64,000 nt of DNA from Cellulomonas cellasea (GTDB taxonomy: Bacteria > Actinomycetota > Actinomycetes > Actinomycetales > Cellulomonadaceae): contig NZ_BJLR01000025.1 in NCBI RefSeq assembly GCF_006538745.1, positions 1-64,000 of the forward strand, read 5' to 3'. Positions within the stretch are counted from its first letter, which is position 1. Every line of letters begins with the position of its first letter. The position numbers and the translations under genes are program-made. The notes under the pieces were generated by a model that was given only the letters and a program-made list of their open reading frames with translations, was not told the origin of the DNA and ran no database searches. Shown one piece after another: positions 1 to 19,849 of this stretch.

Positions 1-136
1 CCCCCCCCCCCCCCGCCCGGTCCGGGGCGCGCGCGCCGGGAGGCGCGGGCTCCCCGGCCGGCGGGCCGGGCGGTGCGGGTGGAGGACGGGCACGCCGCGT
101 GTAGCGTGCAACGAGAGCGACGGACGAGGGCGAGGG

Positions 137-1629: not shown

Positions 1630-1641
1630 CGCGCGCCGGTC

Positions 1642-1695
1642 ACGGACGCCGGCGCACCGGGCGGGGTCTCCCGCACCCGGTGCGCCGGCGTCCGT
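1642..1695. terminator. Bidirectional intrinsic terminator
   Basis: A perfect 20-bp inverted repeat (arms 1642-1661 and 1676-1695) sits between two convergent GAF-ANTAR genes. Its inner bases can pair further (GCGGG with CCCGC). There is no U-tract, as is common for actinobacterial terminators. Confidence 0.8.
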
Positions 1696-1698
1696 GCG

Positions 1699-2448: not shown

Positions 2449-2703
2449 GCCGTTGCTCACCCCTGAACGTCCGGCTCGATGCCGCGTGCGCCCTCGTCGC
2501 CCGTGTTCCGCAGGCGCAGTTCGAGCCGCTGTCCCCGTCGTGGTGCGGGCACGGCGGACCCGCCGCAAACAGCATGAATCGCCCAGCGCCCCGGCGCAAC
2601 ACGGGGAGCGTTCCGCGCGCGCGTCGTGCCTGCTCATGCCATTCTTCGGGGGTCCGGCCGAGCCCCGTGCCGACGTCCCCGAGGGACCGACGGAGGCGCG
2701 CGC

Positions 2704-3632
2704 GTGCACCAGCAGCAGCAGGGAACCGGCCGGGTCGTCGAGGACGACCGCGTGACGGTCGTCGTCGCGAGCCGCGACCGGCGCGAGGAGCTGCTCGGCT
2801 CCCTCGCCCGGCACCGCGCCCCGGTCCTGCTTCTCGACAACGATTCTCGGGACGGCACCGCCGACGCCGTGCGCGCGGCGCTCCCCGACGTCGGCGTGAC
2901 CCGGCTCGACCGCAACGTCGGTGCGTACGCCCGGACCCTCGGGGTGCGGGCCGCACGCACGCCGTACGTCGCCTTCGCCGACGACGACTCCTGGTGGGCC
3001 CACGGCGCGCTGCGCCGCGCCGCCGACGTGCTCGACGCGCACCCGGACGTCGCCGTCGTGGCCGCCCGGATCCACGTCGGTCCGCGGGAGCGGCTCGACC
3101 CGTTCTGCGCCGAGCTCGCGCGCTCGCCGCTCCCGCGCCGGCCAGGGCTGCCCGGGCCGGCGGTCCTCGGCTTCGTCGCGTGCGCCGCGATGGTGCGCGC
3201 GGACGCGTTCGCCTCCGTGGGCGGCTTCGACGACGTGGTGCGCTTCCCCGGCGAGGAGGAGCGGGTCGCGCTCGACCTCGCCGCCGACGGGTGGCAGCTC
3301 GTGTACGTCGACGACGTCCTCGTGCACCACCACCCGTCGCCGGCCCGGCACTCGCCCGACGCGCGCGTGAGCGCCGTGACCCGCTCGCGCGTGCTCACCG
3401 CGGTGCTGCGCCTCCCGGTGCGCGACGTGCTGCGCACCGTGGCCGCGGCGTGGGGAGCCGGGCCCGCGTCGCGCGCCGGGGTCCGCGCCGCCCTGCACGA
3501 CGTGCCCCGGGCGCTGCGCGCACGCCGCGTCGTGCCGCGCCACGTGCAGGAGCTGCGCGCGCTGCTCCGCGACGACCCCGCACCGGCCCGACCCGCCCCC
3601 GCCCCCACCTCCGCCCCGCGACAGGAGACACC

Positions 3633-3636
<4 letters not shown>
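2704..3636 (+). CDS. Family 2 glycosyltransferase
   Basis: A roughly 310-residue GT-A fold transferase. The N-terminus carries [20 protein letters not shown] matches the nucleotide-binding loop, and FADDDSWW supplies the DxD-type metal site; a conserved GGFDD region follows. It should move a sugar from a nucleotide donor to an unknown acceptor at the cytoplasmic membrane face. Two starts are plausible: GTG at 2704 (GGAGG 7 bases upstream) and GTG at 2752 (GAGGA 7 bases upstream). The first was kept because the intervening codons have typical high GC at third positions. Its stop overlaps the next start (ATGA), forming a two-gene operon with the epimerase. Confidence 0.85.
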
Positions 3637-4625
<989 letters not shown>

Positions 4626-4711: not shown

Positions 4712-5731
4712 TCAGCCGTCGCGGCCGAGGAGCGCGTGGGCGCCCGTGAGGACCTCGTCCGCGGTGATCCGGGCCAGCGCGGGGTCGAGCGCCGCGCCGT
4801 GCGGGTCGCCCGGGGAGCCCGGGGACCCGTGCCACAGCACCGTGTGCAGCTCGGCATCGACCGCTGGGCCCCACTGCGCGGGCGGCACGGGGCCGAACAG
4901 CAGGACCGACGGGGTGCCGGTCGCGGTCGCGACGTGGGCGACGCCGGTGTCCCCGCACACGACGAGCCGCGCGCGGGCGACGAGCCCGACGAGCCCGCCC
5001 AGGTCGAGCGTCCCCGCGGTGCGGTGCACGAGGTCGGGGGCTGCGGCGGCCTGCGCGACCTGGTCGACGAGGTCCTTCTCGCCCGCCGAGCCGGTGAGCG
5101 CGACGGTCAGGCCGCGCGCGGTCAGGTCGTGCAGCACGGCGCGCCAGCGCGCGACGGGCCAGCGCCGGGACGCCGACGCCGCGCCGGGGTGCAGCACGAC
5201 GTCGGCGCGCAGAGCCGCGTCGCCGGCGGACGCCGGGGGGACGGGGAGCCGGAGGTCCTCGGCGCCGCACGGCCCGCCCGCGTCGCGCACGAGACGGCAC
5301 CACCGTGCGACCTCGTGCTCGGTGTCGTCCCACGCCGGCCCGGCGTCGTGCCCGGCCTCGGGGCACGCGAACGCCACGAGCCGCGCCGGTGCCGTGCGGA
5401 GCAGCAGGTGGTGGCTCTGCGGCCCGCGGCCGTGCAGGTTGACGGCGACGTGCCCGCGGGTGTCCCACGGCAGGGCGGCGTCCGGGGCGATGCCGCGCGC
5501 GGACACCCCGGTCGCGTCGGTCTCCAGGACCGTGTCGACGACCCCGAGGTCCCGCAGGAGCCCACCCTCGGCCCGGGGCGCGGCGAGCACGAGCCGGCGG
5601 TCCGGCCACGCGCGCCGCACCCCGCGCAGAGCCGGCACCGCGGTCAGGGCGTCCCCGAGGCCGAGCGCCCGCAGCACGAGCACGTCACCCGCGGGGTGCG
5701 CCGGGCCCGCGCCGCCGGGCGCACCGGTCAC
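4712..5731 (-). CDS. Glycosyltransferase family 9 (heptosyltransferase-like)
   Basis: A 339-residue GT-B fold protein of the ADP-heptose:LPS heptosyltransferase family. It has the N-terminal LRALGLGDALTAVPALRG, the central VVLHPGAASASRRWP donor loop and the C-terminal VCGDTGVAHVATATGTP motif. Family members transfer heptose from ADP-heptose to a lipid or glycan acceptor. The GTG start at 5731 overlaps the upstream SDR stop (GTGA). It is the last gene of the nine-gene operon, followed at once by a terminator. A second GT9 lies at 10761, so the pathway probably adds at least two heptose-type residues. Confidence 0.87.
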   Translation of the reverse strand: MTGAPGGAGPAHPAGDVLVLRALGLGDALTAVPALRGVRRAWPDRRLVLAAPRAEGGLLRDLGVVDTVLETDATGVSARGIAPDAALPWDTRGHVAVNLHGRGPQSHHLLLRTAPARLVAFACPEAGHDAGPAWDDTEHEVARWCRLVRDAGGPCGAEDLRLPVPPASAGDAALRADVVLHPGAASASRRWPVARWRAVLHDLTARGLTVALTGSAGEKDLVDQVAQAAAAPDLVHRTAGTLDLGGLVGLVARARLVVCGDTGVAHVATATGTPSVLLFGPVPPAQWGPAVDAELHTVLWHGSPGSPGDPHGAALDPALARITADEVLTGAHALLGRDG

Positions 5732-6456
5732 GGCCAGGAGCCCTCGCCGGACGCCATGACGAGCATCTCGCGGATCTCGCAGCCCACGGGCTGGCGCAGC
5801 GCGGTCAGCACGGCCGCGGCGGTGTCGGCCGGGTCGTTGAGGTCCGCGTCGGGCCCGGGGCGGTACTGCTCGGTGCGCCCGTCGAAGAACGGCGTCCGCA
5901 TCCCGCCGGGGACGAGCAGCGTGACCCCGACCCGCCCGGCGAGCTCGGCGGCGAGCGCCTGGCTGAAGCCGCGCACCGCGAACTTCGACGCGCAGTACGC
6001 CGTGGCGTCGCTCACGCCCTTGAGCCCGAGCGTCGACGCGACGGTCACCACCGTCCCGCGGGACTCCTCGAGGTAGGGCAGGCAGGCGCGGACGACCGCA
6101 ACGGTCCCGAACAGGTTGACCCGCACGACGCGCTCCCACGTCTCGGGGTCGATCTCGGCGAGCGTCCCGCACGCGTCGGTCCCGGCGGCGGTCACGACGG
6201 CCGTGGGCGGGCCGACCTGCGCGACGAGCTGCTCGACGGCGGCCGCGGCGGCCGCGCTGTCCGACAGGTCGACCTGCACGTGCGGGACGTCGCCCGCGGG
6301 GGCGGTCACGTCGAGCACCGCGGGGCGGCCCCCGGCGGCGGTGACGGCCTCCACGACGGCGGCGCCGAGCCCGCTCGCGCCGCCGGTCACGAAGACGGTG
6401 CCGATCTCACGCGGGGCCCGGGCGGCGGGTCGGGTCGAGGTGTCGAGCTGGGTCAC
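5728..6456 (-). CDS. Classical short-chain dehydrogenase/reductase
   Basis: A 242-residue classical SDR with TGGASGLG at residues 24-31, a VTAAG motif in place of the usual NNAG, and the catalytic pair Y154/K158 in YCASK. The size and this motif set are those of NAD(P)-dependent oxidoreductases acting on small alcohols or sugars, not of extended sugar-nucleotide epimerases. The GTG start follows TGAGGAGACCC. It lies 9 bases after hldE, the only operon junction without overlap. It may oxidise or reduce a heptose position, for example as part of a two-step epimerisation, but the substrate is unknown. Confidence 0.84.
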   Translation of the reverse strand: MTQLDTSTRPAARAPREIGTVFVTGGASGLGAAVVEAVTAAGGRPAVLDVTAPAGDVPHVQVDLSDSAAAAAAVEQLVAQVGPPTAVVTAAGTDACGTLAEIDPETWERVVRVNLFGTVAVVRACLPYLEESRGTVVTVASTLGLKGVSDATAYCASKFAVRGFSQALAAELAGRVGVTLLVPGGMRTPFFDGRTEQYRPGPDADLNDPADTAAAVLTALRQPVGCEIREMLVMASGEGSWP

Positions 6457-6465
6457 AGGGTCTCC

Positions 6466-7887
6466 TCACTGGTGGTCCGCACGGGCGAGCCCCGAGCGGC
6501 GGATCATGGTGCTGGTCGAGCGCCCGTCGAGGTAGGGCAGGAGGACCACGCGCCCCCCGTGCCGCTGCACGACCTCGGTCTCGGGCAGGTCTGCGCCGCC
6601 GTAGTCGGCGCCCTTGGCCCACACGTCGGGGCGCAGGGCGTCGAGCGCGGCGCGGGGGTCGTCCTCGTCGAACACGACGACGGCGTCGACGCAGTCGAAC
6701 GCGGCGAGCACGCGCGCCCGGTCGGCCTCGGTCACGACGGGCCGGCCGTCGCCCTTGAGGCGGCGCACCGACGCGTCGGAGTTGAGCAGGACGACGAGCG
6801 CGTCCCCGAGCCGGCGGGCCGACTCGAGCATCGCGACGTGCCCGGCGTGCACGAGGTCGAAGCAGCCACCGGTCGCGACGAGGGTCCCGCCGCCGGCCCG
6901 CAGCCGCGCGGCGACGTCGGCGACCGCGACGTCGCGGTGCTCGACGGCGTCGGGCCGCACGGGTGCCGCCGCGTCGCGGGCCGCGTCCGTGACGGCCCGG
7001 AACGCGTCGGCGCCGCCGCCGCGCACCCAGGCGGTGGCCTCGGCGACGGCGGCCTGGACGGCCTCGGTGAGCACGGCGCCGCGCGCGAGGGCGACGGCGG
7101 CGGTCGCGGCGAACCGGTCGCCGGCCCCGCACGGGTCGCCGCCCTCGACGCTCGGTGCGGGCACGAACAGGGGTGCGCCGCCGGTCGGGGCGACGTAGGC
7201 GCCCTGCGCGCCGACGGTCACGCACACGGCGCGGGCCTGCCACGTCGCGCGCAGGTGCACGGCGAGCGCCTCGGGGGAGTCGCCGGCGGGCGAGCGGTCA
7301 CCCGCCGCGGCGGCGCGCGCCTCGCCGAGGTTCGGCGTGACGAGCGTCGCGCGGGGTACGGGAGCGCCCCCGCGCGGGTGCGGGTCCCACACGAGCAGCC
7401 CGCGCGCGGCCCGCTCGGCGAGCAGCGAGCGCAGGTCCTCGTCGCGGGTCGTGCCGGCGCCGTAGTCGCTGACCAGCACGACGTCGGCGCTCTCGAGCGC
7501 GGCGCGCACCGCGCCGACCTCGACGTCGCGCGGGGTGCCGGGCCCGCCGTGGTCGAGGCGGACGAGCGACTGGCCGCCGCTGCGCACGCGCTCCTTGAGC
7601 CGGGTGGGTCCGCGGTGCCCGAGCGCGAGGACCCCGACGTGCGGCTCGAGGGCGGCGCGCAGGCGGCGGCCCTCGGGGTCGTCGGCGATCGGGGCGACGA
7701 GCGTCACGCGCGCACCGGACGCGGCGCACAGCAGCGCGGTGAGCCCCGCACCGCCGGGGCGCTCGCGCACGTCGGAGACGTCGACGACCGGGACGGGGGC
7801 GTCGGGGCTGAGCCGGTCGGAGCGTCCGTGCACGTCGCGGTCGAGGACGACGTCGCCGACCACGACGACGTGCGGGCGGGCGCTCAC
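6466..7887 (-). CDS. hldE: Bifunctional heptose-7-phosphate kinase / heptose-1-phosphate adenylyltransferase
   Basis: A 473-residue protein, the usual full HldE length. The PfkB kinase half (about 1-310) has GDVVLDRDVHG, RLSPDAPVPVVDV, RPGGAG and the catalytic DPCGAGDRF with D257. The nucleotidyltransferase half (about 335-473) has GGCFDLVHAGHV (H347, H350), NSDASVRRLKGDGRP and DGRSTSTMI. It should phosphorylate D-glycero-D-manno-heptose 7-phosphate at C1 and later transfer AMP to the 1-phosphate. The GTG start overlaps the gmhA stop (GTGA). Arg replaces the usual Thr after GAGD, so substrate details could differ from the enterobacterial enzyme. Confidence 0.92.
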   Translation of the reverse strand: MSARPHVVVVGDVVLDRDVHGRSDRLSPDAPVPVVDVSDVRERPGGAGLTALLCAASGARVTLVAPIADDPEGRRLRAALEPHVGVLALGHRGPTRLKERVRSGGQSLVRLDHGGPGTPRDVEVGAVRAALESADVVLVSDYGAGTTRDEDLRSLLAERAARGLLVWDPHPRGGAPVPRATLVTPNLGEARAAAAGDRSPAGDSPEALAVHLRATWQARAVCVTVGAQGAYVAPTGGAPLFVPAPSVEGGDPCGAGDRFAATAAVALARGAVLTEAVQAAVAEATAWVRGGGADAFRAVTDAARDAAAPVRPDAVEHRDVAVADVAARLRAGGGTLVATGGCFDLVHAGHVAMLESARRLGDALVVLLNSDASVRRLKGDGRPVVTEADRARVLAAFDCVDAVVVFDEDDPRAALDALRPDVWAKGADYGGADLPETEVVQRHGGRVVLLPYLDGRSTSTMIRRSGLARADHQ

Positions 7888-8576
7888 GCGCGGGCCCCCG
7901 TGCCGTCGAGCGTGCGGGCGCCGGCCGTGCGCGCGGGTCCCGGCGCTGCGGGGACAGCGGTCACGGTGAGGGCCGGGGTGTCCGCGGCGACGAGCCCCGC
8001 GTCGTGCTGCTCGACGCGGGCGTCGAACGCGGCGCACAGCGCGTGGATCGCGACGAGGTGCGCGGCCTGCACCGCGGCGGTCGACGGCGCGGGCACGGCC
8101 AGGGCCTCGTGCGAGCGCCCGACGAGCGGGTTCGGCGCGGCGCCGGACAGCGCCCACACGCGCAGGCCCAGCGCCTGGCCGCGCTCGGCGGCGCGCAGGA
8201 TGTTCGGGCTGCGGCCCGACGTGGAGAGCAGCACGAGCACGTCGCCGGGGCGCCCGTGCGCCTCGACCTGGCGGGCGAACATCTCGTCGGCGCCGTAGTC
8301 GTTGACGATCGCGGTGACGCTCGAGCTCTCCGCGCACAGCGACAGCGCGGAGAACGGGCGGCGGTCGGCGAGGAAGCGCCCGACGAGCTCGCTCGTGAGG
8401 TGCTGCGCCTCCGCGGCGCTGCCGCCGTTGCCCGCGACGAGCACGCGGTGCCCGGCGACGAGGCGGTCGGCGAGCTCGGCGCCCCACCGCTCGACGAGCC
8501 AGCTCTGGTCCCCGAGCCAGCGCAGCGCGCGGGTCAGCTCGTGGGTGTGCTCCTCGATCCACGACTGCGTGCTCAT
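7884..8576 (-). CDS. gmhA: Sedoheptulose-7-phosphate isomerase (SIS domain)
   Basis: A 230-residue SIS-fold isomerase. The family signature GNGGSAAEAQHLTSELVGRF is at about residues 48-67 and the second phosphate loop is LSTSGRSPNILRA. GmhA converts sedoheptulose 7-phosphate to D-glycero-D-manno-heptose 7-phosphate, the first committed step to ADP-heptose. The core matches the usual length of about 195 residues; about 35 extra residues at the C-terminus (VTAVPAAPGP and onward) look disordered. It overlaps both neighbours by 4 bases, directly upstream of hldE, which supports assignment over other SIS proteins. Confidence 0.88.
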   Translation of the reverse strand: MSTQSWIEEHTHELTRALRWLGDQSWLVERWGAELADRLVAGHRVLVAGNGGSAAEAQHLTSELVGRFLADRRPFSALSLCAESSSVTAIVNDYGADEMFARQVEAHGRPGDVLVLLSTSGRSPNILRAAERGQALGLRVWALSGAAPNPLVGRSHEALAVPAPSTAAVQAAHLVAIHALCAAFDARVEQHDAGLVAADTPALTVTAVPAAPGPARTAGARTLDGTGARA

Positions 8577-9808
8577 ACGGCCTGCTCCTCGACGACGTGG
8601 GCCACCCGGCCGGCGGACAGGACCTCTCGGTACACGCGTGCGGTCTGCTGCGCGACGCGGTCCCACCCGTACCGGCGCACGGCGCGCCGGCGTGCGGCGG
8701 TGCCGAGCCCGACGGCATGGTCGGGGTCGTCGACGATCGAGCGGACGGCGCGGGCGAGCGCGAGTGCGTCGCGCGGCGGGACGAGCACGCCGGTGGTGCC
8801 GTCCTGGACGGTGTCGAGCATCCCGCCGACCGCGCTCGCCACGACGGGCCGCCCGCACGCCGCGGCCTCGAGCGGGACGATCCCGAACGGCTCGTACCAG
8901 GGGGTCGCGACCACGACGTGCGCCGAGCGCAGCACGGCGGGCATGTCGTCGTGCGCGACGCGGCCGAGGAACCGGACGCGGTCCTCGACGTGCAGGTCGC
9001 ACGCGAGCTGCCACAGGCGCCGGCCCTCGGGGTCGTCGCGCACCTCCTCCTGCGCGGGCCCGCCGACCACGGCGAGCTCGACGTCGGGCAGGAGCGGCAG
9101 CGCGCGCACGGCGTTGTCGACGCCCTTGCGCTCGACGAGCCGGCCGACGGACAGCATCCGGAACCGGCCGTCCTGCAGCGGCGGGACGGCGTCGTCCGGC
9201 CGAGGCGGCCGGAAGTGCGTGACGTCCACGCCGCACGGCACGACCGACACGCGCGAGGACGGGACCCCGAGCCGCACGAGCTCGGCGAGCTCGTCGGTGC
9301 ACGTCGCCACGACCCGCGTGACCGTGCGGGCGATCTTCGCCTCGACGTCCGCGCGCCCCGCCGGGCTCGTGTCGCGCTCGCGCTGGTGGCGGCGCTTGAC
9401 GGAGCCGAGCGCATGGAACGTCTGCACCACGGGCGGTCCGGTCACGGCGGCGGCCCGCAGCGCGGCGAGCCCCGACATCCAGAAGTGGCCGTGCACGACG
9501 TCGGGTGCGCCGTGCTCGCGCCACTCGCGGGCGAGCTCGTCGCCGAGCTCGGTCATGTACGGCAGCAGCTCGTCCTTCGGCAGGGCCCGGGCCGGCCCCG
9601 CGGTCACGTGCACGACCCGCACGCCCGGGCGCATCTCGACGACGCGCGGCAGGCTCGCGTCGTCGCGCCGGGTGTACACGTCGACCTGGTGCCCGAGCCG
9701 CGCGAGGTGCTCGGCGAGCGCGGCGACGTGGACGTTCTGCCCGCCGGCGTCGACGCCACCGAGCGTGGCGAGCGGGCTGGCGTGCTCCGACACCATCGCG
9801 ATCCTCAT
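8573..9808 (-). CDS. Family 4 glycosyltransferase
   Basis: A 411-residue GT-B transferase. Its N-terminus (SEHASPLATLGGVDAGGQNV) is the acceptor-side signature of retaining GT4 enzymes close to sucrose-synthase and MshA types. The C-terminal donor site shows VGRLVERKGVD, GGPAQEE and the EPFGIVPLEAAACGRPVV motif with its conserved glutamates. The donor and acceptor cannot be assigned; operon position suggests a sugar added to the heptose glycan. ATGA overlaps on both sides fix the start. Confidence 0.88.
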   Translation of the reverse strand: MRIAMVSEHASPLATLGGVDAGGQNVHVAALAEHLARLGHQVDVYTRRDDASLPRVVEMRPGVRVVHVTAGPARALPKDELLPYMTELGDELAREWREHGAPDVVHGHFWMSGLAALRAAAVTGPPVVQTFHALGSVKRRHQRERDTSPAGRADVEAKIARTVTRVVATCTDELAELVRLGVPSSRVSVVPCGVDVTHFRPPRPDDAVPPLQDGRFRMLSVGRLVERKGVDNAVRALPLLPDVELAVVGGPAQEEVRDDPEGRRLWQLACDLHVEDRVRFLGRVAHDDMPAVLRSAHVVVATPWYEPFGIVPLEAAACGRPVVASAVGGMLDTVQDGTTGVLVPPRDALALARAVRSIVDDPDHAVGLGTAARRRAVRRYGWDRVAQQTARVYREVLSAGRVAHVVEEQAV

Positions 9809-10764
9809 CGGACGACCTCCTTGAGCAGGACTTGCCAGTCGGACAGGAAGCGGTCGAGACCGAAGTGCTCGAGCGCGTGGGCACGGGCGGCCCGGCCGTG
9901 GGCGCGGGCCTCCTCGGGGTCGTGCAACCAGCGGCGTGCGGCGGAGACGAGCACGTCGGGGTCCGAGCTCACGACCCCCGCCGACGGGGGGACCGCCTCG
10001 GGGGCCGCGGTCGTGGCGAGCGCGAGCACCGGCATGCCGATCGTCATCGCCTCGACGAGGGCCAGCCCGAGGCTCGTCCACCGGAACGGGTGCAGGTACG
10101 CGCGGGCCCCGGCGAGGCGGGCGTGCATCTGGGCCTGCGGGACGTCGTCGTGCAGGTGCCCGGCGAGCGCGGGCGCGAGGTCCGCGAGCCCGAGGACGCC
10201 CATGCCGTACACCTCGACGGGGACCCGCTCGGCGGCGTGCAGCAGCAGGTCCGTCCCGGCGACCCGGCCGCGGCGCACCGGTTCGTTGACGACGGCCGCG
10301 ATGCGCTCGCGCTCCCCGGTCCACAGCGGCCCCGGGTCGTGCACGCCGTGGTCGACGACCGTGGTGAGCGCGCGCCCGCAGTCCCACATGAGCGCGTTGA
10401 ACGCGGTCACGTGCGCGACGGGGATGTCGGAGCGGTCCGCGAGCGGGTGCCGGGTCGTCGCCGCGGGGCCCGCCGGGGTGTTGTGCTCGACGTACACCGC
10501 CGGCACGTCGACCCCGGCCCGCAGCCCCGTCCAGCGCTCGAGCAGCTCGATCTCGTGCGGGCGCTGGAGGACCACGACGTCGGGCTCGGCGTCCCGCAGG
10601 TCCTCGGGGGCGACCTCGCGGGCGCTCGCGGGCCACGTCCACGTCCGCGCGCGCCCGCGCCCGTCGGGGCCGCGGTCGGGCACGACGGGGATGAGGTACT
10701 CGTCCGGGCCGGCGACGAACGACGTCTGCCACGAGCCGTGCACGTGCCACACGAGGACCCTCAT
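9805..10764 (-). CDS. Glycosyltransferase-like protein, GT-B type
   Basis: A 319-residue protein recognised mainly by its C-terminal half: YLHPFRWTSLGLALVEAMTI and GMPVLAL resemble the donor-binding region of GT4 enzymes. The N-terminal half (VWHVHGSWQTSFVAGPDEYL) is typical of a less studied bacterial group. It probably adds a sugar in the same pathway as its neighbours. The ATG at 10764 overlaps the upstream GT9 stop, and its own stop overlaps the downstream GT4 start. Substrates are unknown, and remote homology is the only support for transferase function. Confidence 0.78.
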   Translation of the reverse strand: MRVLVWHVHGSWQTSFVAGPDEYLIPVVPDRGPDGRGRARTWTWPASAREVAPEDLRDAEPDVVVLQRPHEIELLERWTGLRAGVDVPAVYVEHNTPAGPAATTRHPLADRSDIPVAHVTAFNALMWDCGRALTTVVDHGVHDPGPLWTGERERIAAVVNEPVRRGRVAGTDLLLHAAERVPVEVYGMGVLGLADLAPALAGHLHDDVPQAQMHARLAGARAYLHPFRWTSLGLALVEAMTIGMPVLALATTAAPEAVPPSAGVVSSDPDVLVSAARRWLHDPEEARAHGRAARAHALEHFGLDRFLSDWQVLLKEVVR

Positions 10765-11792
10765 GCGCCCACCTCCGTGGCGACGCGCGCACCGGCGAGG
10801 GAGGCGACGGCGTCGACGACCTCCGCGGCGCCGACGCCCGTCAGGCACGGGTGGCCCGCGACGGGGCACTCCCGCGCCCGCGTCCCGCGGCACGCCGCGC
10901 CCTGGTCGCCCAGCAGCCGGACCGGCACGCCGTACGGCGCCCAGCGCTCCGCGGGGACGACGGGGGAGAACAACGACACCACGGGCGTGCCGACCGCGGC
11001 GGCGAGGTGCGCCGGGCCGGTGTTGCCCGTCACGACGCACGCCGCGCCCGCGAGCAGCGCCGCCAGCCGGTGCAGGTCGGTGCGGCCCGCCACCGGGGTC
11101 CCGGCGTCGCCCGCGACCTGCGCCGCGAGCTCGTGCTCCGCCGCGCCGCCGGTCACCAGGACCCGCCAGCCGGCGTCCGCGAGCGCCGCGACCATCGCCG
11201 CGGCGTGCCCGGGCGCGGGGGCCCGCGAGGGCACCGACGCCGACGGGTGCACCACCACGTACGGCGCGTCGGGCGCGAGGTCCGCGACCGAGGGCAGCGG
11301 CTCGCGCACCCGCAGGCGCCCGTCGTCGCCGGGCGCGAGCTCCCCGCCCGCCGCCCGCGCCAGCCCGAGCGCGGCCTCGACCTCGTGCAGGCCGTCCGGG
11401 CGCGGGTGGCGCACGTCGAGCAGCGACCCGGGGTAGTCGTGGCTCGTCGCGCCGACCCACCCGATGCCCGCCATCCGCGCGAGCAGCGCCATGGGCAGGG
11501 GGCTCTGGTGGTCGGACGTGAACACCACGGCCCGGTCGTACTGGTGGGCCCGCAGCCGCGCGAGCAGCGCCTGCACCGCACCCGTGCTGAACTCCGGGGG
11601 GCGGTAGCCGGTCCAGGGGGCGTCGAAGCGCAGCACCTCGTCGACCCCGGGCAGCAGCCGTGCGGCAGCCTCGCCCGACGCGGAGACCAGGAGGTCGACG
11701 CCTGACGCGGTCGCGGCGAGGGCCCGGACCGCGGGACCGGTCAGCAGGACGTCCCCGACGTTGTCGAGGCGGACAGCCAGGACCCTGCTCAT
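10761..11792 (-). CDS. Glycosyltransferase family 9 (heptosyltransferase-like)
   Basis: A 343-residue GT9 enzyme. It begins VLAVRLDNVGDVLLTGPAVR, the family N-terminal motif, has VVVHPSASVPSRAP in the donor loop and VVTGNTGPAHLAAAVGTPVV near the C-terminus. A late cysteine-bearing stretch (ACRGTRARECPVAGHPCL) resembles the metal or structural loop of some actinobacterial GT9 proteins. Expected role: transfer of a heptose from ADP-heptose to a growing glycan. Both ends overlap neighbouring genes by 4 bases. It differs clearly from the GT9 at 4712, suggesting a different acceptor. Confidence 0.88.
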   Translation of the reverse strand: MSRVLAVRLDNVGDVLLTGPAVRALAATASGVDLLVSASGEAAARLLPGVDEVLRFDAPWTGYRPPEFSTGAVQALLARLRAHQYDRAVVFTSDHQSPLPMALLARMAGIGWVGATSHDYPGSLLDVRHPRPDGLHEVEAALGLARAAGGELAPGDDGRLRVREPLPSVADLAPDAPYVVVHPSASVPSRAPAPGHAAAMVAALADAGWRVLVTGGAAEHELAAQVAGDAGTPVAGRTDLHRLAALLAGAACVVTGNTGPAHLAAAVGTPVVSLFSPVVPAERWAPYGVPVRLLGDQGAACRGTRARECPVAGHPCLTGVGAAEVVDAVASLAGARVATEVGA

Positions 11793-13453
11793 CGGGCACC
11801 CCCGCCCACGGTCGACAGCGGCGCGGGTCGCGCGGCGGGTCCGTGCTCGCCCGGCACGGGCACCGCGCCGGTGACCTCGGCCACCTCGGTGGGCGCCGCG
11901 GGGGAGCCGCCCGCGAGGCGCTCGCGGACCAGCGCGACGGCCTCGGTCAGGCTCACGGCCACCTGGGGTGCCGCGGCGACCTCCTCGGGCCGGGTCACGG
12001 GCGTCGGCACGAGCACCGCACCCGCCCCGGCGGCGACCGCCGCACCGACGTCCGCGCCGATGTCGCCGATCACGACGCACTCCGCGGGGCTCAGCCCGAG
12101 CTGCGCCGCGGCGCGCAGCACGAGACCCGGCTGCGGCTTGCGGCACGTGCACGCGTCCTCGGGGGCGTGCGGGCAGCGCACCCACACGTCGAACGGCCCG
12201 AGCTCGGCCTCGACCCGCGCCTCGACCGCCTCGACCTGCGCGAGGGTGACGATGCCCCGACCGATGCCCGACTGGTTCGTCACGACGCCGACCTGGATGC
12301 CGCGGGCCCGCAGGTCGTCGAGCACCGCGCGCGCGTCGTCGACGACCCGCACCCGGTCCGGGTCGCCGTTGTACGGGACGTCGTGCACGAGCGTGCCGTC
12401 CCGGTCGAAGAGCACCGCGCGCACCGGCGGCGGCCACGCGGGCGCCCCGCCGCGGTGGCGCAGGAGCCCCGCCACCCGGTGCCGCACCGCGACGGGCGGG
12501 ATCACCGCGCTCGTCCAGGCCATCGTCCGCCACTCCGCGACCCAGCCGTCCTCGCCGGGCCCCGGCCCGGGGGCGACCCGGCGCCGCACGAAGTCCGCGG
12601 TGAGCGCCGCCCACGCCGCGCCCGCGGCCGCCGCGACCCCGCGGCGGCCGAGGACCGCCGCCCCGAGCGCACCGACCCCGGCGCCCACGGTGGCGACGTG
12701 CCACGCGAACCGTCCGCGCCCCGTCTCGGCCGCCTCGCGCCACCGCGGTCCGTGCAGCGCCCGCATCAGCGCGTCGTCCCGCGCCCCGGCCTGGACGCGC
12801 ACGCTGACCCGCGGGTCCGCCGGCCGCACCGGGTGCTCCGTGGTGCGCGAGCCCCGCACGAGCCGCCAGCCCGCGCGCCGTGCCCGCAGCGCGAGGTCCG
12901 CGTCCTCGCGGTAGGCCCGCGGGAACCGCTCGTCGAAGCCGGCGAGCCCCTCGAGCACCTCCCGGCGGTACGCCATGTCCGCGGTCGCCCAGCGCGCACC
13001 CTCGAGCCCGGCGGTGTTCCGCTCCCAGTCCGTGGGGCGCCGGTGCGCGGGCAGCGGGACCCGCAGCCGCGCCTGCGTCCCCGCGACGTCCGGCCCCGTC
13101 GCCGCGAGGTCCGCCGCGAGGCGCTCCGACCAGTCCCCGGGCAGCACGACGTCGTCGTCGAGCAGCACGACCCACTCCGCGCGCACCGAGCGCCACCCGG
13201 CGTTGCGCGCCGCGGCCGGACCGCGGCCGCCCGAGCGCACGACCCGCACCGGCACGCCCCGCGCGGTCAGCGCGGGCAGGTCCGGGAGCACGAGCGCCTC
13301 CGGGGCGCCGTCGAGCGGCCGGTCGTCGCACACCACGACCTCGACCGGCGCCGGGCGCGCGTCGTCGAACCGCTGCGCCGCGAGGCTCTCGAGCAGCACC
13401 CCCAGCGAGGGACGCCCGATCGTCGGGACCACGACCGCGTACGCCGCCCTCAT
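11789..13453 (-). CDS. GT2 glycosyltransferase fused to GmhB-type heptose bisphosphate phosphatase
   Basis: A 554-residue two-domain protein. Residues 1 to about 300 are a GT-A transferase (VVVPTIGRPSLGVLLESLAA, GPAAARNAGW, LLDDDVVLPGDW, the last giving the DxD site). Residues about 345-505 are a HAD-IIIA phosphatase of the GmhB/HisB-N type: FDRDGTLV with D350 and D352, VTNQSGIGRG, the zinc-site CPHAPEDACTCRKPQPGL and VIGDIGADV. GmhB removes the 7-phosphate from heptose 1,7-bisphosphate, supplying the step between the two HldE reactions. A short Pro/Ala-rich tail follows. Fusion of a transferase to GmhB is unusual. Confidence 0.88.
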   Translation of the reverse strand: MRAAYAVVVPTIGRPSLGVLLESLAAQRFDDARPAPVEVVVCDDRPLDGAPEALVLPDLPALTARGVPVRVVRSGGRGPAAARNAGWRSVRAEWVVLLDDDVVLPGDWSERLAADLAATGPDVAGTQARLRVPLPAHRRPTDWERNTAGLEGARWATADMAYRREVLEGLAGFDERFPRAYREDADLALRARRAGWRLVRGSRTTEHPVRPADPRVSVRVQAGARDDALMRALHGPRWREAAETGRGRFAWHVATVGAGVGALGAAVLGRRGVAAAAGAAWAALTADFVRRRVAPGPGPGEDGWVAEWRTMAWTSAVIPPVAVRHRVAGLLRHRGGAPAWPPPVRAVLFDRDGTLVHDVPYNGDPDRVRVVDDARAVLDDLRARGIQVGVVTNQSGIGRGIVTLAQVEAVEARVEAELGPFDVWVRCPHAPEDACTCRKPQPGLVLRAAAQLGLSPAECVVIGDIGADVGAAVAAGAGAVLVPTPVTRPEEVAAAPQVAVSLTEAVALVRERLAGGSPAAPTEVAEVTGAVPVPGEHGPAARPAPLSTVGGGAR

Positions 13454-15126
13454 CGGGCGGCCACCCCGGCCGACGCCCCCACCCGCGCGAACATCGTGGA
13501 CCGCCGCACCAGGTACGGCCCCACCACCAGCAGGTCGACCGGCGCCGACCCGAACAGCTCGAGCGCGTCCCGCGGGTCGTCGACCATCGGCCGCCCCGCC
13601 GTGTTCAGGCTCGTGTTGATCACGACCGGCAGGCCCGTGCGCGCCTCGAACGCCCGCAGCGTCGCCCCCAGGCGCGGCTGCACCGCCGGGTCCACCGTCT
13701 GGATCCGCGCCGTCCCGTCGACGTGCACCGCCGCCGGGATCCGCTCGCGCCACGCCGGGCGGACGCTGTGCACGAACAGCATGTACGGGCTCGGGATCGG
13801 CCCGTCCGTGAAGATCTCCTCCGCGCGGTCCGCGAGCACCATCGGCGCGACCGGGCGGAACTGCTCGCGGCCCTTGACGTCGTTGAGGCGCTCGAGGTTC
13901 TCCGGGTGCCCCGGGTGCGCGAGCAGCGACCGGTGCCCGAGCGCTCGCGGGCCGAACTCGCTGCGGCCGTCGAACCACGCGACGACGCCGTTGCGCGCGA
14001 GGACGTCCGCCACCTCCGCGCCGAGGTCGGCGGGCTCGCTGAACGGGACGGCCGCCCCGCGCAGCCACGCCGCGAGGTCGTCGTCGCTCCACCCGCGGCC
14101 GAGGTCCGCCCCGGGCATCGGCGTGAGCTGCTCGCCGCCGTCGGCCGCGACCTGCAGCGCGGCGCCGAGCGACGTGCCCGCGTCCCCGGCGGCGGGCTGG
14201 ACCCACACGTCCTCGAACGGGGTCTCGCGCCAGATCCGGGAGTTGGCGACGCAGTTCAGCGCGGTGCCGCCAGCCATCGCGAGCATCCGGTCGCCGGTCT
14301 GCTCGTGCACCCAGCGCGCGAGCTCGACGAGGACCTCCTCGAGGCGGGCCTGCACCGAGCACGCGAGGTCGGCGTGGTCCCCGCCCCACGTGCCGTCGTC
14401 GACCCGCTTCGGGGCCCAGCGCGACCAGTCGGGCGCCTGCGCGACGAACCCGCCGTCGCCGGTGGTGTGGACGACCTCGCGGAGCTCCTCGAGGAAGCGC
14501 GGCTTGCCGTAGGAGGCGAGCGCCATGACCTTGTACTCGTCGCTCGAGCGCAGGAAGCCGAGGTGCTCGGTCAGCGACTCGTAGAGCAGACCGAGCGAGT
14601 GGGGCAGGCCCTGGCTCGCGAGCACCTCGAGGCGCCCGCCGCGGTACCGGCCGGCGAGGTGCGAGGCGCGCTCGCCGCGCCCGTCGAGGACGAGGACGCT
14701 GCAGTCGCCGTGCGGCGCGGCCAGCGCGGCGGAGGCGGCGTGCGCGACGTGGTGGGGGACGTAGCGCACGAGCGCGGGGTCGACCTCGCCGCCGAGCGCC
14801 GTGGAGATGAAGCCCGGGGCCTTCTCGGCGTACGTGGTGCGCAGGTGGTCCCAGGGGTCGTGCAGGCCGAGCTGCTCGGCGGGCACCACGAGGCTCGGGT
14901 CGAACGAGTACGCGACCGCGTCGAGGTCCTGAGGCCGCAGGCCGGCCTCGGCGAGGCACCAGCGCATCGACAGCTCGGGCAGCTCCCACGCCGAGAACGG
15001 CACGGGGCGCTTGCCGTGCTTGCGCCGGCTGAAGCGCTCCTCCTCGGCGGCGGCGACCGTCACGCCGTCGACGACGAGGGCTGCGGAGGGGTCGTGGTAG
15101 ATGGCGTTGATGCCGAGCACGCGCAT
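13450..15126 (-). CDS. Carbamoyltransferase, NodU/CmcH family
   Basis: A 558-residue protein beginning MRVLGINAIYHDPSAAL, the family's N-terminal ATPase-like motif. It has the metal-binding HxxxH (H125 and H129 in HHVAHAA), MAGGTALNCVANS, FGPRALGHRS and INTSLNTAGRPMV near the C-terminus. Such enzymes make carbamoyl-adenylate from carbamoyl phosphate and ATP, then carbamoylate a hydroxyl on a sugar or antibiotic. As first gene of the heptose operon it probably decorates the glycan or a sugar nucleotide. The ATG is preceded by GAGAAAGG at a rather long distance. Confidence 0.88.
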   Translation of the reverse strand: MRVLGINAIYHDPSAALVVDGVTVAAAEEERFSRRKHGKRPVPFSAWELPELSMRWCLAEAGLRPQDLDAVAYSFDPSLVVPAEQLGLHDPWDHLRTTYAEKAPGFISTALGGEVDPALVRYVPHHVAHAASAALAAPHGDCSVLVLDGRGERASHLAGRYRGGRLEVLASQGLPHSLGLLYESLTEHLGFLRSSDEYKVMALASYGKPRFLEELREVVHTTGDGGFVAQAPDWSRWAPKRVDDGTWGGDHADLACSVQARLEEVLVELARWVHEQTGDRMLAMAGGTALNCVANSRIWRETPFEDVWVQPAAGDAGTSLGAALQVAADGGEQLTPMPGADLGRGWSDDDLAAWLRGAAVPFSEPADLGAEVADVLARNGVVAWFDGRSEFGPRALGHRSLLAHPGHPENLERLNDVKGREQFRPVAPMVLADRAEEIFTDGPIPSPYMLFVHSVRPAWRERIPAAVHVDGTARIQTVDPAVQPRLGATLRAFEARTGLPVVINTSLNTAGRPMVDDPRDALELFGSAPVDLLVVGPYLVRRSTMFARVGASAGVAAR

Positions 15127-15470
15127 GCAGGGCCGACCTTTCTCAGGGGTCAGTCGTGTGAGCGCGTGGCTGGACTCGAGGGACACTCTGTTCCCCTCGG
15201 GCGGTTCTCGCACCTTGAACCGGTTCTCGGCGGTCTGTCCGGTTCGTTCCGAACCGCGAGCGCCTGACCTGCGACATCGGTTCCGGCGCCCGTTCCGCGA
15301 GCGGGCCGCAGGCGGGGGCCCCGGCGGTGCGCGCCGGGGCCGGACGCCGCCCCTCGGGGCGGTCCGCGGACGGTCCCGGGGCGGTCCACGGGCGGTTCCG
15401 CGGCGGTCTGCGGCCGGTCCCGGGGCGGGCGCGGCGGTGCCCGTGGCGGGCCGTCCGGGAGACGGTGGCG
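15127..15470 (-). promoter_or_regulatory. Leader/promoter region of the heptose operon
   Basis: A 344-base non-coding stretch. It contains two direct copies of CGGTTCTCG (15202-15210 and 15221-15229, 19 bp apart), and an inverted repeat CGGTTC-GTTCC-GAACCG (15240-15256). A related CGGTTCTC occurs at 16334-16341 upstream of the adjacent GAF-ANTAR gene. The distal part, roughly 15300-15460, is GC-rich with repeated GGGGCGGTCC-like words. No convincing -10/-35 pair was found. The repeats are seen directly; an operator role is inference. Confidence 0.5.
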
Positions 15471-16217
15471 TCAGAGCCCTGGCTTGCGCTCCGCGAACTC
15501 GGTGCCGGGCTGCGGGGCGACGCCGGTGACGTTCTCGATGAGCGACGCGGCGACGTCGCGGAGCTTGAGGTTGCGGTTCTGGGACGCGCTGCGCAGGATC
15601 CGGAACGCCTCCTCGGACGAGCAGCGGTTCTCGGCCATGATCACGCCCATCGCCTGGTCGATCACGGCCCGGGACGCGAGCGCGGCCTTGAGGTCCTCGT
15701 TGATCTCCGCCTGGTCCGCGGAGCGCAGGCACAGGCGCAGGGTCCGGGCCACCTCGTCGGCGTACATCTCGGCGGTCGCGAGCGCGGCGTCGTCCCACGC
15801 GCCCGGGTCCTCGGAGTACAGGTTGATCGCGATGTCGACGCCCTCCCGGACCGGGCGGGGGATCGCGGCGGCGGACCGGAAGCCCGCACGTCGGGCGGCG
15901 TCGGCCCACGCGGGCCAGCGGTCCTCGCCCTCGAGCTCCTGGATGACGATCCGCCCCCCGGTCTCCGCGGACGTCAGGCACGGACCCTCGTTCGCGGCGA
16001 ACTCGACCTCGTCGCACTGCGCGGCGCGCTCGTCGCTGCTCGCGACACCCGTCGGACGGCCCTGCCGCTTGAGCATGATCGCCACGTGCGCGTCGGGCGC
16101 GATGCGGCCGGCGGCGGCCTGCGCCACGCCCTCGACGAACTCCTCGACACCCGCCGCCTCGAGCAGGAGGGTGTGCAGCTCGGTGATCGCCTGTGCGCGC
16201 TCGACGGTCTGGTCCAT
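15471..16217 (-). CDS. GAF-ANTAR regulator upstream of heptose operon
   Basis: A 248-residue protein: GAF domain about 10-160, ANTAR about 172-230 ([15 protein letters not shown]). It is a close paralogue of the protein at 1699. GAGGAG lies 7 bases before the ATG at 16217. It is encoded on the same strand as, and 344 bases upstream of, the heptose operon, so it could be co-transcribed or act on that leader RNA. ANTAR proteins act by RNA antitermination, making the leader an obvious place to look for its target, but no dual-hexaloop motif was recognised by eye. Confidence 0.88.
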   Translation of the reverse strand: MDQTVERAQAITELHTLLLEAAGVEEFVEGVAQAAAGRIAPDAHVAIMLKRQGRPTGVASSDERAAQCDEVEFAANEGPCLTSAETGGRIVIQELEGEDRWPAWADAARRAGFRSAAAIPRPVREGVDIAINLYSEDPGAWDDAALATAEMYADEVARTLRLCLRSADQAEINEDLKAALASRAVIDQAMGVIMAENRCSSEEAFRILRSASQNRNLKLRDVAASLIENVTGVAPQPGTEFAERKPGL

Positions 16218-16540
16218 GGGGGCGCTCCTCGGGTCGACGACGTTCACGGGACCAGGATCGCGCGGGCACCCGGTTCCCGCACGCGCCGCGCGCGAGGCCG
16301 GTCGGACGCCCGTCCGGCTCCGGTCGCGAGAAGCGGTTCTCCGGCGCACCATCTGTCCCAAGAGCCGCGTCGGCTCGGTCCTCCAGCCAGCGGGGACGCC
16401 CGCCCGGGTCCGCCCGGGCGGACCGGTGCCGTCCGCCACCCGTGGACGCACCCGCCCGCCGGCGTCCGCGTCCGCTTCCGTCGACGACCGTCGGCCCGGA
16501 CCGGCGTGGGTCTCCACGGGCGGGATCGGAGGGGTGCGTG
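16218..16540. promoter_or_regulatory. Divergent intergenic region with 18-bp palindrome
   Basis: A 323-base gap between the GAF-ANTAR gene and the ABC importer. It holds a perfect 18-bp palindrome, GGTCCGCCCGGGCGGACC (16407-16424), about 117 bases upstream of the binding-protein start, a plausible operator. CGGTTCTC at 16334-16341 matches the repeats in the heptose-operon leader. No clear -10 element is visible on either strand. Confidence 0.45.
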
Positions 16541-17938: not shown

Positions 17939-17939
17939 C

Positions 17940-19726: not shown

Positions 19727-19730
19727 GCCC

Positions 19731-19764
19731 ACCGGCAGGTCCGGCGCCCGCCGGGCCTGCCGGT
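19731..19764 (+). terminator. Terminator of sugar importer operon
   Basis: A stem formed by ACCGGCAGG (19731-19739) and CCTGCCGGT (19756-19764), extended inward by CCGGC/GCCGG pairing, starts 5 bases after the permease stop. Confidence 0.7.
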
Positions 19765-19777
19765 CCCGCGCGTGCCG

Positions 19778-19828: not shown

Positions 19829-19849
19829 GTCAGCGACGCCGGGCGCCGG

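What the first reader, a model, noticed from the sequence alone, without database searches (positions are those of the whole stretch)
4712..15126. ADP-heptose-type glycan operon in a Gram-positive actinobacterium
GmhA, HldE with both domains, and a GmhB domain are encoded with two GT9 heptosyltransferase-like enzymes, further glycosyltransferases and a carbamoyltransferase in one nine-gene operon. These steps suffice to make ADP-D-glycero-D-manno-heptose from sedoheptulose 7-phosphate. ADP-heptose is established in Gram-negative LPS, in some S-layer glycans and in a few antibiotics, and is a known trigger of the ALPK1 innate sensor. The product here is likely a surface glycan or glycoconjugate; that is inference.
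Basis: partly seen in the sequence, partly recalled or inferred. Interest (0 to 1): 0.78.

Follow-up and report, generated by a model that had tools for sequence, protein, structure and literature searches.

The report
Carbamoyl-heptose sugar-assembly operon in actinobacterium
A Gram-positive bacterium carries a conserved gene set that looks able to make an activated seven-carbon sugar, best known from the outer coat of Gram-negative bacteria, and to build it into a decorated sugar compound whose final form is unknown.

Summary
Window 4712-15126 (minus strand) carries nine packed genes: carbamoyltransferase, GT2-GmhB fusion, GT9, two GT4, GmhA, HldE, SDR, GT9. The GmhA, HldE and GmhB residues checked are present. 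In the 4.7-Mb genome these are the only GmhA, GmhB and GT9 matches and the only clear HldE. No HldD passes its cut-off and no LpxC is found, so the likely donor is NDP-D,D-heptose and the product is not LPS. The set is patchy in Actinomycetota (37 of 396 genomes); 46 of 67 loci with enough flank hold all nine genes.

Strongest new evidence: all eight Burkholderiales loci fetched carry the assembly genes without GmhA/HldE, as expected where the host already makes ADP-heptose for LPS. The carbamoyltransferases of both groups form one set in a tree. This supports heptose as building block and O-carbamoylation, as in Pseudomonas core LPS. All reactions, the acceptor and the location are inferred; 'surface glycan' is unproven. 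NDP-heptose synthesis in actinobacteria is already published, so this is a new variant of a known kind.

The parts
13450..15126 (-). Carbamoyltransferase (CT), first gene of the operon, ATG start at 15126
   Evidence: Pfam Carbam_trans_N/C; PDB relatives TobZ, GdmN, decarbamoylnovobiocin CT; 47-48% to Burkholderiales CTs and one set with them in a tree
11789..13453 (-). GT2 glycosyltransferase fused to GmhB-type HAD phosphatase
   Evidence: AlphaFold model pLDDT 85.4, strands and helices of a GT-A-like part, three helices (249-332), HAD part; HAD part matches GmhB 3l8h Z 23.3, rmsd 2.1, 169 aligned
10761..11792 (-). GT9 heptosyltransferase-like (GT9a)
   Evidence: PF01075 100.1 bits; PDB 1psw, 2gt1
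9805..10764 (-). GT4 glycosyltransferase (GT4a)
   Evidence: PF00534 41.6 bits
8573..9808 (-). GT4 glycosyltransferase, MshA-like (GT4b); not the genome's MshA
   Evidence: TIGR03449 259.2 bits, cut-off 462.5; the genome's MshA (560.4 bits with its neighbour in frame) lies on contig C18
7884..8576 (-). GmhA-type sedoheptulose 7-phosphate isomerase
   Evidence: TIGR00441 143.2 bits; E63/H178 present (catalytic role recalled); only GmhA match in the genome
6466..7887 (-). HldE: heptose 7-phosphate kinase + heptose 1-phosphate nucleotidyltransferase; carries YLDGRSTS
   Evidence: NF008454 291.4 bits over both domains; D257, H347, H350; PDB 4e84 and 5x9q
5728..6456 (-). Classical short-chain dehydrogenase, role unassigned
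   Evidence: PF00106 128.5 bits; 57 of 80 loci, 50 of them at 59% identity or more and 7 under 40% (counted from the list)
4712..5731 (-). Second GT9 heptosyltransferase-like (GT9b)
   Evidence: PF01075 85.7 bits
3633..4625 (+). UDP-glucuronate decarboxylase (UDP-xylose synthase, UXS), convergent with the operon
   Evidence: 345 bits to the solved UDP-glucuronate decarboxylase 1 chain 2b69; match in 54 of 80 loci at E 1e-5, family in 50 of 80 by clustering, and in 8 of 8 Burkholderiales loci fetched
2707..3636 (+). GT2 glycosyltransferase (GT2b); start codon not determined
   Evidence: PF00535 63.1 bits; family in 37 of 80 loci, counterpart in 7 of 8 Burkholderiales loci
15471..16247 (-). GAF-ANTAR regulator directly upstream of the operon (functional link inferred)
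   Evidence: PF03861 76.3 bits; kept at 94% in congener G003
1699..2460 (-). GAF-ANTAR regulator beside GT2b (functional link inferred)
   Evidence: PF03861 75.3 bits; 74% in G003
15127..15470 (-). Leader of the operon; its part next to the CT start is, by eye, much better kept in G003 than the rest; holds a possible ACAGAG hexaloop hairpin and a degenerate palindrome at 15215-15228
   Evidence: function inferred
16328..16341 (.). Perfect palindrome GAGAAGCGGTTCTC between the ANTAR gene and the solute-binding-protein gene; related palindromes lie upstream of CT in other genera

Best explanation
A self-contained heptose-glycoconjugate pathway. GmhA isomerises sedoheptulose 7-phosphate, the HldE kinase phosphorylates it at C1, the GmhB domain of the fusion removes the 7-phosphate, and the HldE nucleotidyltransferase activates heptose 1-phosphate as ADP-heptose (possibly also CDP/UDP). 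With no HldD, the sugar probably stays D-glycero-D-manno. The two GT9 enzymes transfer heptose; the GT4 and GT2 enzymes add other residues, one likely xylose from the neighbouring UDP-xylose synthase; the carbamoyltransferase caps a sugar, by analogy the heptose. The result is a short, carbamoylated, heptose-containing oligosaccharide on an unknown acceptor. Shown by computation: gene content, residues, exclusivity in the genome, conservation, and the parallel Burkholderiales module lacking GmhA/HldE. Inferred: every reaction, the sequence of steps, the acceptor and the location.
For: Domain families of all nine genes. Residues: GmhB D350, D352, C427, K439, D464 identical in 80 of 80 loci and H429, C435, C437 in 79 of 80; GmhA E63 in 71 of 71 and H178 in 70 of 71; HldE D257 in 71 of 71, H347 and H350 in 70 of 71 (for H178, H347 and H350 the one exception was not covered by the alignment). 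Only GmhA, GmhB and GT9 matches of the genome, only clear HldE. No HldD over cut-off (best 118.9 of 274.6 bits), no LpxC. All ten domains in 46 of 67 loci with enough flank, nine or more in 59 of 67. In the 8 Burkholderiales loci fetched (of 9 listed at that identity) CT, GT2, GmhB, both GT9, both GT4 and UXS are present and GmhA/HldE give no match at E 1e-8; both are present in 3 of 3 actinobacterial loci of the same collection. CT tree: the two groups form one set at 100/99 against 7 other CTs. Precedent: two heptosyltransferases and the putative carbamoyltransferase WapO in the Pseudomonas inner core (PMC8005017 passages).
Against: No enzyme reaches the cut-off of a heptose-named NCBIfam model, and the HAD passes the histidinol-phosphatase-domain model. 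The Burkholderiales module keeps a GmhB-type HAD although it drops GmhA/HldE, so the HAD may act on another phosphate. GT9 and GT4 donors cannot be read from sequence. A close SDR relative is in only 50 of 80 loci (list). The CT target sugar is by analogy only. Burkholderiales chromosomes were not held, so their own GmhA/HldE are established knowledge, not tested here. The 80 loci were kept for the best match to the fusion, which biases the neighbourhood counts.
Confidence: 0.72

Rival explanations
1. The product is a small soluble or exported molecule (pseudo-oligosaccharide or glycoside, perhaps stress-linked) rather than a surface glycan: the MshA-like GT4b, the HAD phosphatase and, in Burkholderiales, a PIG-L deacetylase resemble the transferase / phosphatase / deacetylase order of mycothiol synthesis (recalled), decorated with heptose, pentose and carbamoyl.
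For: GT4b matches MshA at 259 bits; PIG-L in 7 of 8 Burkholderiales loci, one being the query's own; the HAD is kept there without GmhA/HldE; no flippase, polymerase or ligase recognised on reading the 30 largest flank families; an ABC exporter counterpart in 7 of 8 Burkholderiales loci, one being the query's own.
Against: With the Burkholderiales proteins as queries, PIG-L gave no match in the 80 named actinobacterial loci and the ABC exporter matched only 3; the modelled three-helix segment after the GT2 domain hints at membrane work; 16 of 80 loci carry a polysaccharide pyruvyl-transferase-like family.
Confidence: 0.3
2. A secondary-metabolite (antibiotic) sugar cluster like those of septacidin or bleomycin.
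For: Carbamoyltransferase or heptose genes occur in such clusters (septacidin heptose: PMC10948575 passage; bleomycin BlmD carbamoyltransferase with sugar genes: PMC7017467 passages).
Against: The set is conserved over many families from Cellulomonas to Nocardia and Solirubrobacteraceae; the Pfam-scanned neighbours (genes within window 2-4625 and 15471-28865) show no NRPS or PKS (28866-64000 was not scanned); a Burkholderiales counterpart exists.
Confidence: 0.1
3. The enzymes act on a hexose or other phosphate (for example ADP-mannose), with heptose names being only family labels.
For: Cut-offs of heptose-named models not met; HldE enzymes of E. coli and Vibrio accept beta-mannose 1-phosphate in vitro (PMC10948575 passage).
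Against: A GmhA with the expected residue pair and a two-domain HldE occur together with GT9 as the only copies in the genome; GmhA/HldE are missing from the 8 Gram-negative loci examined.
Confidence: 0.12

Closest known systems
Actinobacterial NDP-heptose synthetases (Tang et al. [quoted passage not shown] title seen in reference lists only)
   Same: Same activities in the same phylum (from the title); 10 of the 80 loci of this cluster carry GmhA and HldE in one frame, the tridomain form
   Different: In the window GmhA and HldE are separate genes and the phosphatase is fused to a GT2; the paper is not held, so what it says of the cluster is unknown to me
Pseudomonas LPS inner-core heptose region with WapO carbamoyltransferase (PMC8005017 passages)
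   Same: Two heptosyltransferases with a carbamoyltransferase and further GTs; a PIG-L gene as in the Burkholderiales module
   Different: No LpxC in the window's genome; heptose kinases of the core type not seen in the operon; GmhA/HldE are inside the operon
Burkholderiales module on records filed as plasmids, some of them megaplasmids or secondary replicons (for example NZ_CP020399.1, NZ_CP134198.1, NZ_CP017563.2)
   Same: CT, GT2, GmhB HAD, two GT9, two GT4, UXS as counterparts at 33-54% identity (L258 also holds a second UXS match at 65%)
   Different: No GmhA/HldE; GT2 and HAD are separate; PIG-L and ABC exporter added in 7 of 8
ADP-heptose of septacidin biosynthesis (Tang et al. 2018; reference and a passage citing it only)
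   Same: S7P-derived heptose in an actinobacterium
   Different: Here a GT-rich cluster spread over the phylum; no nucleoside-antibiotic genes recognised among the scanned neighbours

Membership tests
ADP-heptose biosynthesis (GmhA-HldE-GmhB route) | Isomerase, kinase, phosphatase and nucleotidyltransferase domains all present with key residues | tested here: met
   (roles of the residues recalled)
ADP-heptose biosynthesis (GmhA-HldE-GmhB route) | NCBIfam cut-offs of heptose-named models of GmhA, HldE, GmhB | tested here: not met
   All below cut-off; so not filed as NCBIfam equivalogs, and the claim rests on residues and context
ADP-heptose biosynthesis (GmhA-HldE-GmhB route) | Enzymatic formation of ADP-heptose from S7P | not testable with these tools
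   Needs purified proteins
ADP-L-glycero-D-manno-heptose (HldD step) | HldD 6-epimerase over cut-off in the genome | tested here: not met
   Best 118.9 bits, cut-off 274.6
GDP-D-alpha-D-heptose route (HddA/HddC) | HddC-type nucleotidyltransferase and alpha-type phosphatase in the operon | tested here: not met
   Nucleotidyltransferase domain is CTP_transf_like/rfaE_dom_II; HAD scores 110.4 bits to the beta model NF006506, 44.3 to the alpha model NF050049; the rest of the genome was not searched for this
Lipopolysaccharide inner core | Lipid A pathway (LpxC) | tested here: not met
   No LpxC match in the genome; 4 of 14 control genomes match
GT9 glycosyltransferases | PF01075 over gathering score | tested here: met
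   100.1 and 85.7 bits, cut-off 22; donor not testable
Tridomain NDP-heptose synthetase | Isomerase, kinase and nucleotidyltransferase in one chain | tested here: not met
   Separate genes 7884-8576 and 6466-7887; in one frame in 10 of 80 related loci
STTR5 promiscuous nucleotidyltransferase motif (F/L)XXGRSTT | Exact motif | tested here: not met
   Window has YLDGRSTS: Arg5 kept, first and last positions differ; Arg in 44 of 71 loci, 2 of the 71 not covered; motif from PMC11573728
NodU/CmcH-type O-carbamoyltransferase | Carbam_trans_N and Carbam_trans_C domains over gathering score | tested here: met
   176.9 and 212.2 bits

The most novel reading that the evidence does not exclude
The assembly genes are one old module shared by Actinomycetota and Burkholderiales that makes an undescribed carbamoylated heptose (plus pentose) glycoconjugate, probably stress-related; actinobacteria carry their own NDP-heptose supply because they have no LPS pathway to draw on. 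It would be a heptose-based conjugate common to Gram-positive and Gram-negative bacteria and separate from LPS, possibly built on a mycothiol-like pseudo-disaccharide core.
Probability: 0.35. Interest if true: 0.78.

Novelty: new variant of a known kind. Interest (0 to 1): 0.58.

Why it matters
A 2008 survey of bacterial glycan structures found L-glycero-D-manno-heptose confined to Gram-negative bacteria (PMC2543016 passage). A patchy but phylum-wide operon in Actinomycetota that seems to make and use NDP-heptose, with a matching module in Burkholderiales that appears to borrow the host's ADP-heptose, gives a direct way to find the missing heptose conjugate and its role. Because NDP-heptoses activate ALPK1 (PMC11573728), it also predicts which Gram-positive species could trigger that sensor.

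Tried and rejected
Rejected: LPS-like product (no LpxC); GDP-heptose route within the operon; HldD epimerisation; the UXS as a 6-epimerase (61.2 bits to TIGR02197, cut-off 274.6, against 345 bits to a solved UDP-glucuronate decarboxylase). Bleomycin-type sugar cluster as parent: a paper gives BlmE as sugar transferase, BlmF as hydroxylase and BlmD as carbamoyltransferase; my own recollection of BlmF as a GT/phosphatase could not be checked, so it stays a lead.

Led nowhere: the SDR2 gene 19850-21430 as island edge. Five congeners lacking the cluster have a relative of it, but G005 and G002 share no match with the left flank of G003, and G005 matches neither the G003 cluster region nor the window apart from the SDR2 stretch, so no empty site could be defined. 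Rfam search of the window: nothing at gathering score. Folding of the whole leader is no better than shuffles (z -0.90). The ACAGAG hexaloop hairpin is weak evidence: in the window 8 pairs, reached by 11 of 300 mononucleotide shuffles; in G003 13 pairs, 0 of 300; and the minimum-energy fold closes the loop further, to three bases, in both. Paper searches for actinobacterial heptose glycans found no description of this cluster in the listings; only open-licence PMC papers are held.

Weak or mixed: stress-gene neighbourhood. Control stretches were two 20-kb pieces per genome at places I chose, in the same 20 genomes as the foreground flanks. GAF-ANTAR: 15 of 700 flank ORFs against 1 of 738 control ORFs (Fisher p 0.00017) and 12 of 785 flank ORFs of the 80 named loci (p 0.0023); but by genome, without the congener, 6 of 19 against 1 of 20 (p 0.039), and 5 of 19 against 1 of 20 with the Streptomyces-plasmid query only (p 0.08). 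Several queries (STAS2, HHE2, SigBF, KatA, DUF3618, holin) came from the foreground loci themselves and are biased; SigB/F showed no enrichment. By genome with outside queries, CBS, hemerythrin, Mn-catalase, STAS, CsbD and PRC showed no significant enrichment. The same control supports the sugar partners: GT2b 14 of 700 against 0 of 738, UXS 9 of 700 against 2 of 738 (p 3.9e-5 and 0.026). An aldehyde dehydrogenase family in 21 of 80 loci was not followed up. The palindrome was read by eye in 13 loci; of the 59 other loci with usable upstream sequence, 7 score at least 9 of 10, against about 0.7% of random stretches of the same loci, which are mostly coding (counted from the list). Two of its three perfect copies in the genome lie inside coding-like frames.

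Rows dropped: one search counted only ORFs with 80% query coverage (GMHB 19, GmhA 25), so those figures were replaced. One search used 67 of 80 loci (13 too short). In one search, L249 was cut to 1000 bases because it overlaps L229. In one search two genes were given in a wrong frame (567-1629 and 2574-3636, no hits) and were repeated in the right one. Of the plasmid hits, 25 of 170 were listed and 18 fetched. Of the nine listed Burkholderiales rows near 47%, H6 was not fetched.


Full report
WHAT IS THERE. Gene calling by codon-position GC bias gives nine minus-strand genes that fill 4712-15126 with almost no spacing. In order of transcription: carbamoyltransferase (CT), GT2-GmhB fusion, GT9a, GT4a, GT4b, GmhA, HldE, SDR, GT9b (Pfam and NCBIfam). 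HldE has kinase and nucleotidyltransferase domains that match a solved heptose 7-phosphate kinase (4e84) and a solved putative cytidylyltransferase (5x9q). GmhA matches 15 solved sequences: 13 named phosphoheptose isomerase (one of them 'putative') and 2 DiaA. The HAD part of the fusion matches solved D,D-heptose 1,7-bisphosphate phosphatases best and HisB phosphatase less well, and an AlphaFold model (mean pLDDT 85.4) aligns its residues 344-513 to GmhB 3l8h with Z 23.3, rmsd 2.1 over 169 residues. None of the three enzymes reaches the cut-off of a heptose-named NCBIfam model, which I report as a limit.

SELF-CONTAINED PATHWAY. In the whole genome (4.73 Mb, 99.98% complete) the operon holds the only GmhA match, the only GmhB match, both GT9 genes and the only clear HldE (one other weak match of 28.5 bits). 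No HldD epimerase passes its cut-off and no LpxC is found, while 4 of 14 control genomes match. So, if the enzymes do what their families do, the cell makes NDP-D,D-heptose for this operon and not for LPS.

WIDER LOCUS. Convergent with the operon lie a GT2 (GT2b, about 2707-3636) and a UDP-glucuronate decarboxylase (3633-4625; 345 bits to a solved chain). Their families recur beside the cluster: UXS in 54 of 80 loci at E 1e-5 (50 by clustering), the GT2 family in 37, an aldehyde dehydrogenase in 21, UDP-glucose dehydrogenase in 19, a polysaccharide pyruvyl-transferase-like family in 16 (one member each of the UXS, GT2, UDP-glucose dehydrogenase and pyruvyl-transferase families was checked by Pfam). 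Against control stretches of the same genomes GT2b (14 of 700 ORFs against 0 of 738) and UXS (9 against 2) are enriched. Four GAF-ANTAR genes flank the operon (161-841 +, 838-1629 +, 1699-2460 -, 15471-16247 -).

DISTRIBUTION. The fusion profile matches 37 of 396 genomes drawn from the phylum at E 1e-60 (some by one domain only); HldE 28 of 246 at E 1e-40; the fusion 17 of 59 relatives at E 1e-20, and 2 of the 7 genomes of the window's genus, the window's own included. A scan of the named genome collection found at least 447 relatives and kept the best 80, from Cellulomonas, Georgenia and Isoptericola to Nocardia, Actinomadura, Kribbella, Geodermatophilus, Solirubrobacteraceae and one Dormibacteraeota bin. 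By domain: CT 75, GT9a 74, GT4b 71, GmhA 71, HldE 71, GT9b 70, GT4a 68, SDR 57 of 80; of the 57 SDR matches 50 are at 59% identity or more and 7 are under 40%, likely other SDRs. Of 67 loci with enough flank, 46 have all ten domains and 31 of these have them in the window's order on one strand. GmhA and HldE share one frame in 10 loci, GT4b and GmhA in 8, GT2 and GmhB in 75. In congener G003 the region is kept with dN/dS 0.05-0.29 for the 11 sugar genes. Key residues are invariant or nearly so. No tool named the window's genus; G036 of the same family has a contig of the same length as one of Promicromonospora thailandica, so a Cellulomonas-like organism is likely (inference).

THE BURKHOLDERIALES MODULE. 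A protein search of plasmid records with the CT found three actinobacterial records (69-72%; one of them an 11.9-Mb Nonomuraea record) and then nine listed rows at 46.7-47.7% in Burkholderia, Paraburkholderia, Caballeronia and Cupriavidus, ahead of the remaining listed rows at 40% and below (145 rows were not listed). I fetched 8 of the 9; some of these records are megaplasmids or secondary replicons of up to 2.5 Mb. All 8 hold CT, GT2, GmhB-type HAD, GT9a, GT9b, GT4a, GT4b and UXS counterparts; 7 of 8 GT2b; 7 of 8 PIG-L and 7 of 8 an ABC exporter counterpart (one of each 7 being the query's own locus; the receiver domain joined to the exporter was checked only in L174); 3 of 8 an SDR counterpart. 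GmhA and HldE give no match in any of the 8 stretches of about 30 kb, and both match in 3 of 3 actinobacterial records (E 1e-8). For one locus (L174) the genes were also compared protein by protein. In a CT tree of 31 rows the 16 actinobacterial and 8 Burkholderiales sequences form one set against 7 other carbamoyltransferases (100/99), each group being whole (root placed at the midpoint). The simplest reading is that the assembly enzymes use ADP-heptose, which Gram-negative hosts make for LPS (established knowledge; chromosomes not held here), and that actinobacteria bring their own supply. The tension: the HAD is kept in Burkholderiales, where a host GmhB should exist.

HOW IT LIKELY WORKS. 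S7P to D,D-heptose 7-phosphate (GmhA), to the 1,7-bisphosphate (HldE kinase), to the 1-phosphate (GmhB domain), to ADP-heptose (HldE), then transfer by the two GT9 enzymes, extension by GT4 and GT2 enzymes with xylose or similar from UXS, and O-carbamoylation. A carbamoyl group on heptose of the Pseudomonas inner core, set by the putative carbamoyltransferase WapO, is the precedent (PMC8005017, passages). Whether the nucleotide is ADP only is open: the window has YLDGRSTS where the promiscuity motif is (F/L)XXGRSTT (PMC11573728, first of two parts of the whole text). All reactions are inferred.

SURFACE OR NOT. Reading one member of each of the 30 largest flank families, I recognised no flippase, polymerase or ligase; only four were checked by Pfam, and flanks reach at most 10 kb. 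The modelled three-helix stretch (249-332) after the GT2 domain would fit membrane association, but hydropathy is modest: a 19-residue window of 1.52 at 250-268, and a window over 1.2 in that region in 10 of 13 aligned fusions. GT4b is MshA-like and, in Burkholderiales, accompanied by PIG-L and a phosphatase, which recalls mycothiol synthesis (recalled). I therefore keep a soluble pseudo-oligosaccharide as the main rival.

REGULATION AND CONTEXT. GAF-ANTAR genes lie beside the cluster also in a Streptomyces plasmid, with STAS, CBS and CsbD genes. Against control stretches of the same genomes the enrichment is strong per ORF and marginal per genome. Two of the Burkholderiales loci lie near Mn-catalase, hemerythrin and phasin genes. 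A Frankia study lists an ADP-heptose:LPS heptosyltransferase gene, unique to salt-tolerant strains, as up-regulated under salt stress (PMC5563000, passages); whether it belongs to this cluster is unknown. A stress role is a lead, not a result. The leader holds, in both congeners, a possible hairpin with an ACAGAG hexaloop; the A1/G4 hexaloop rule for ANTAR targets is recalled, the usual second hairpin was not established, and the minimum-energy fold closes the loop to three bases.

NOVELTY. NDP-heptose synthesis outside Gram-negatives, and in actinobacteria in particular, is in print: the commentaries PMC11573728 and PMC11461863 (first of two parts of each text read) and the title of Tang et al. 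2022 (paper not held). What I did not find in the searches made (listings and passages only) is the nine-gene assembly cluster, its GT2-GmhB fusion, or its Burkholderiales counterpart. Hence: new variant of a known kind, interest 0.58.

Noticed in passing
window 161-841 (+), 838-1629 (+), 1699-2460 (-), 15471-16247 (-): Four GAF-ANTAR regulator genes flank the operon; three have close counterparts in the same places in congener G003, and ANTAR genes also lie near the cluster in a Streptomyces plasmid (L173).
   Followed up: partly
window 16328-16341 and 15215-15228; upstream of CT in L051-L130: Palindrome of the type GAGAAGCGCTTCTC before the carbamoyltransferase start: 14 of 73 upstream stretches score at least 9 of 10 (31-133 bases before the start), against 0.7% of random stretches. 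Binding protein unknown.
   Followed up: partly
window 15127-15290 (-): Leader segment that looks, by eye, far better kept in G003 than the sequence before it, with a possible hairpin whose loop is ACAGAG; possible ANTAR target.
   Followed up: partly
L174 8019-10763; counterparts in L177, L258-L262: ABC exporter with a C-terminal response-regulator receiver domain (PF00664, PF00005, PF00072; checked in L174 only) beside the Burkholderiales heptose module; an unusual join.
   Followed up: no
window 26127-28865 (-): Large protein with BNR/sortilin-type repeats and a C-terminal CBM2 cellulose-binding domain, likely secreted.
   Followed up: no
L071, L070, L100, L098, L075, L073, L117, L069: GT4b and GmhA in one frame in eight loci, a link between an MshA-like transferase and the heptose isomerase.
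   Followed up: no
L108, L111, L125 (Nocardia): The GmhB-type domain fails the simple motif patterns, although the aligned residues are kept in nearly all loci (one of 80 departs at each of H429, C435 and C437).
   Followed up: partly
L052-L130, mostly minus strand, about 3.4 kb before the fusion gene: An aldehyde dehydrogenase family in 21 of 80 loci; link to the cluster unknown.
   Followed up: no
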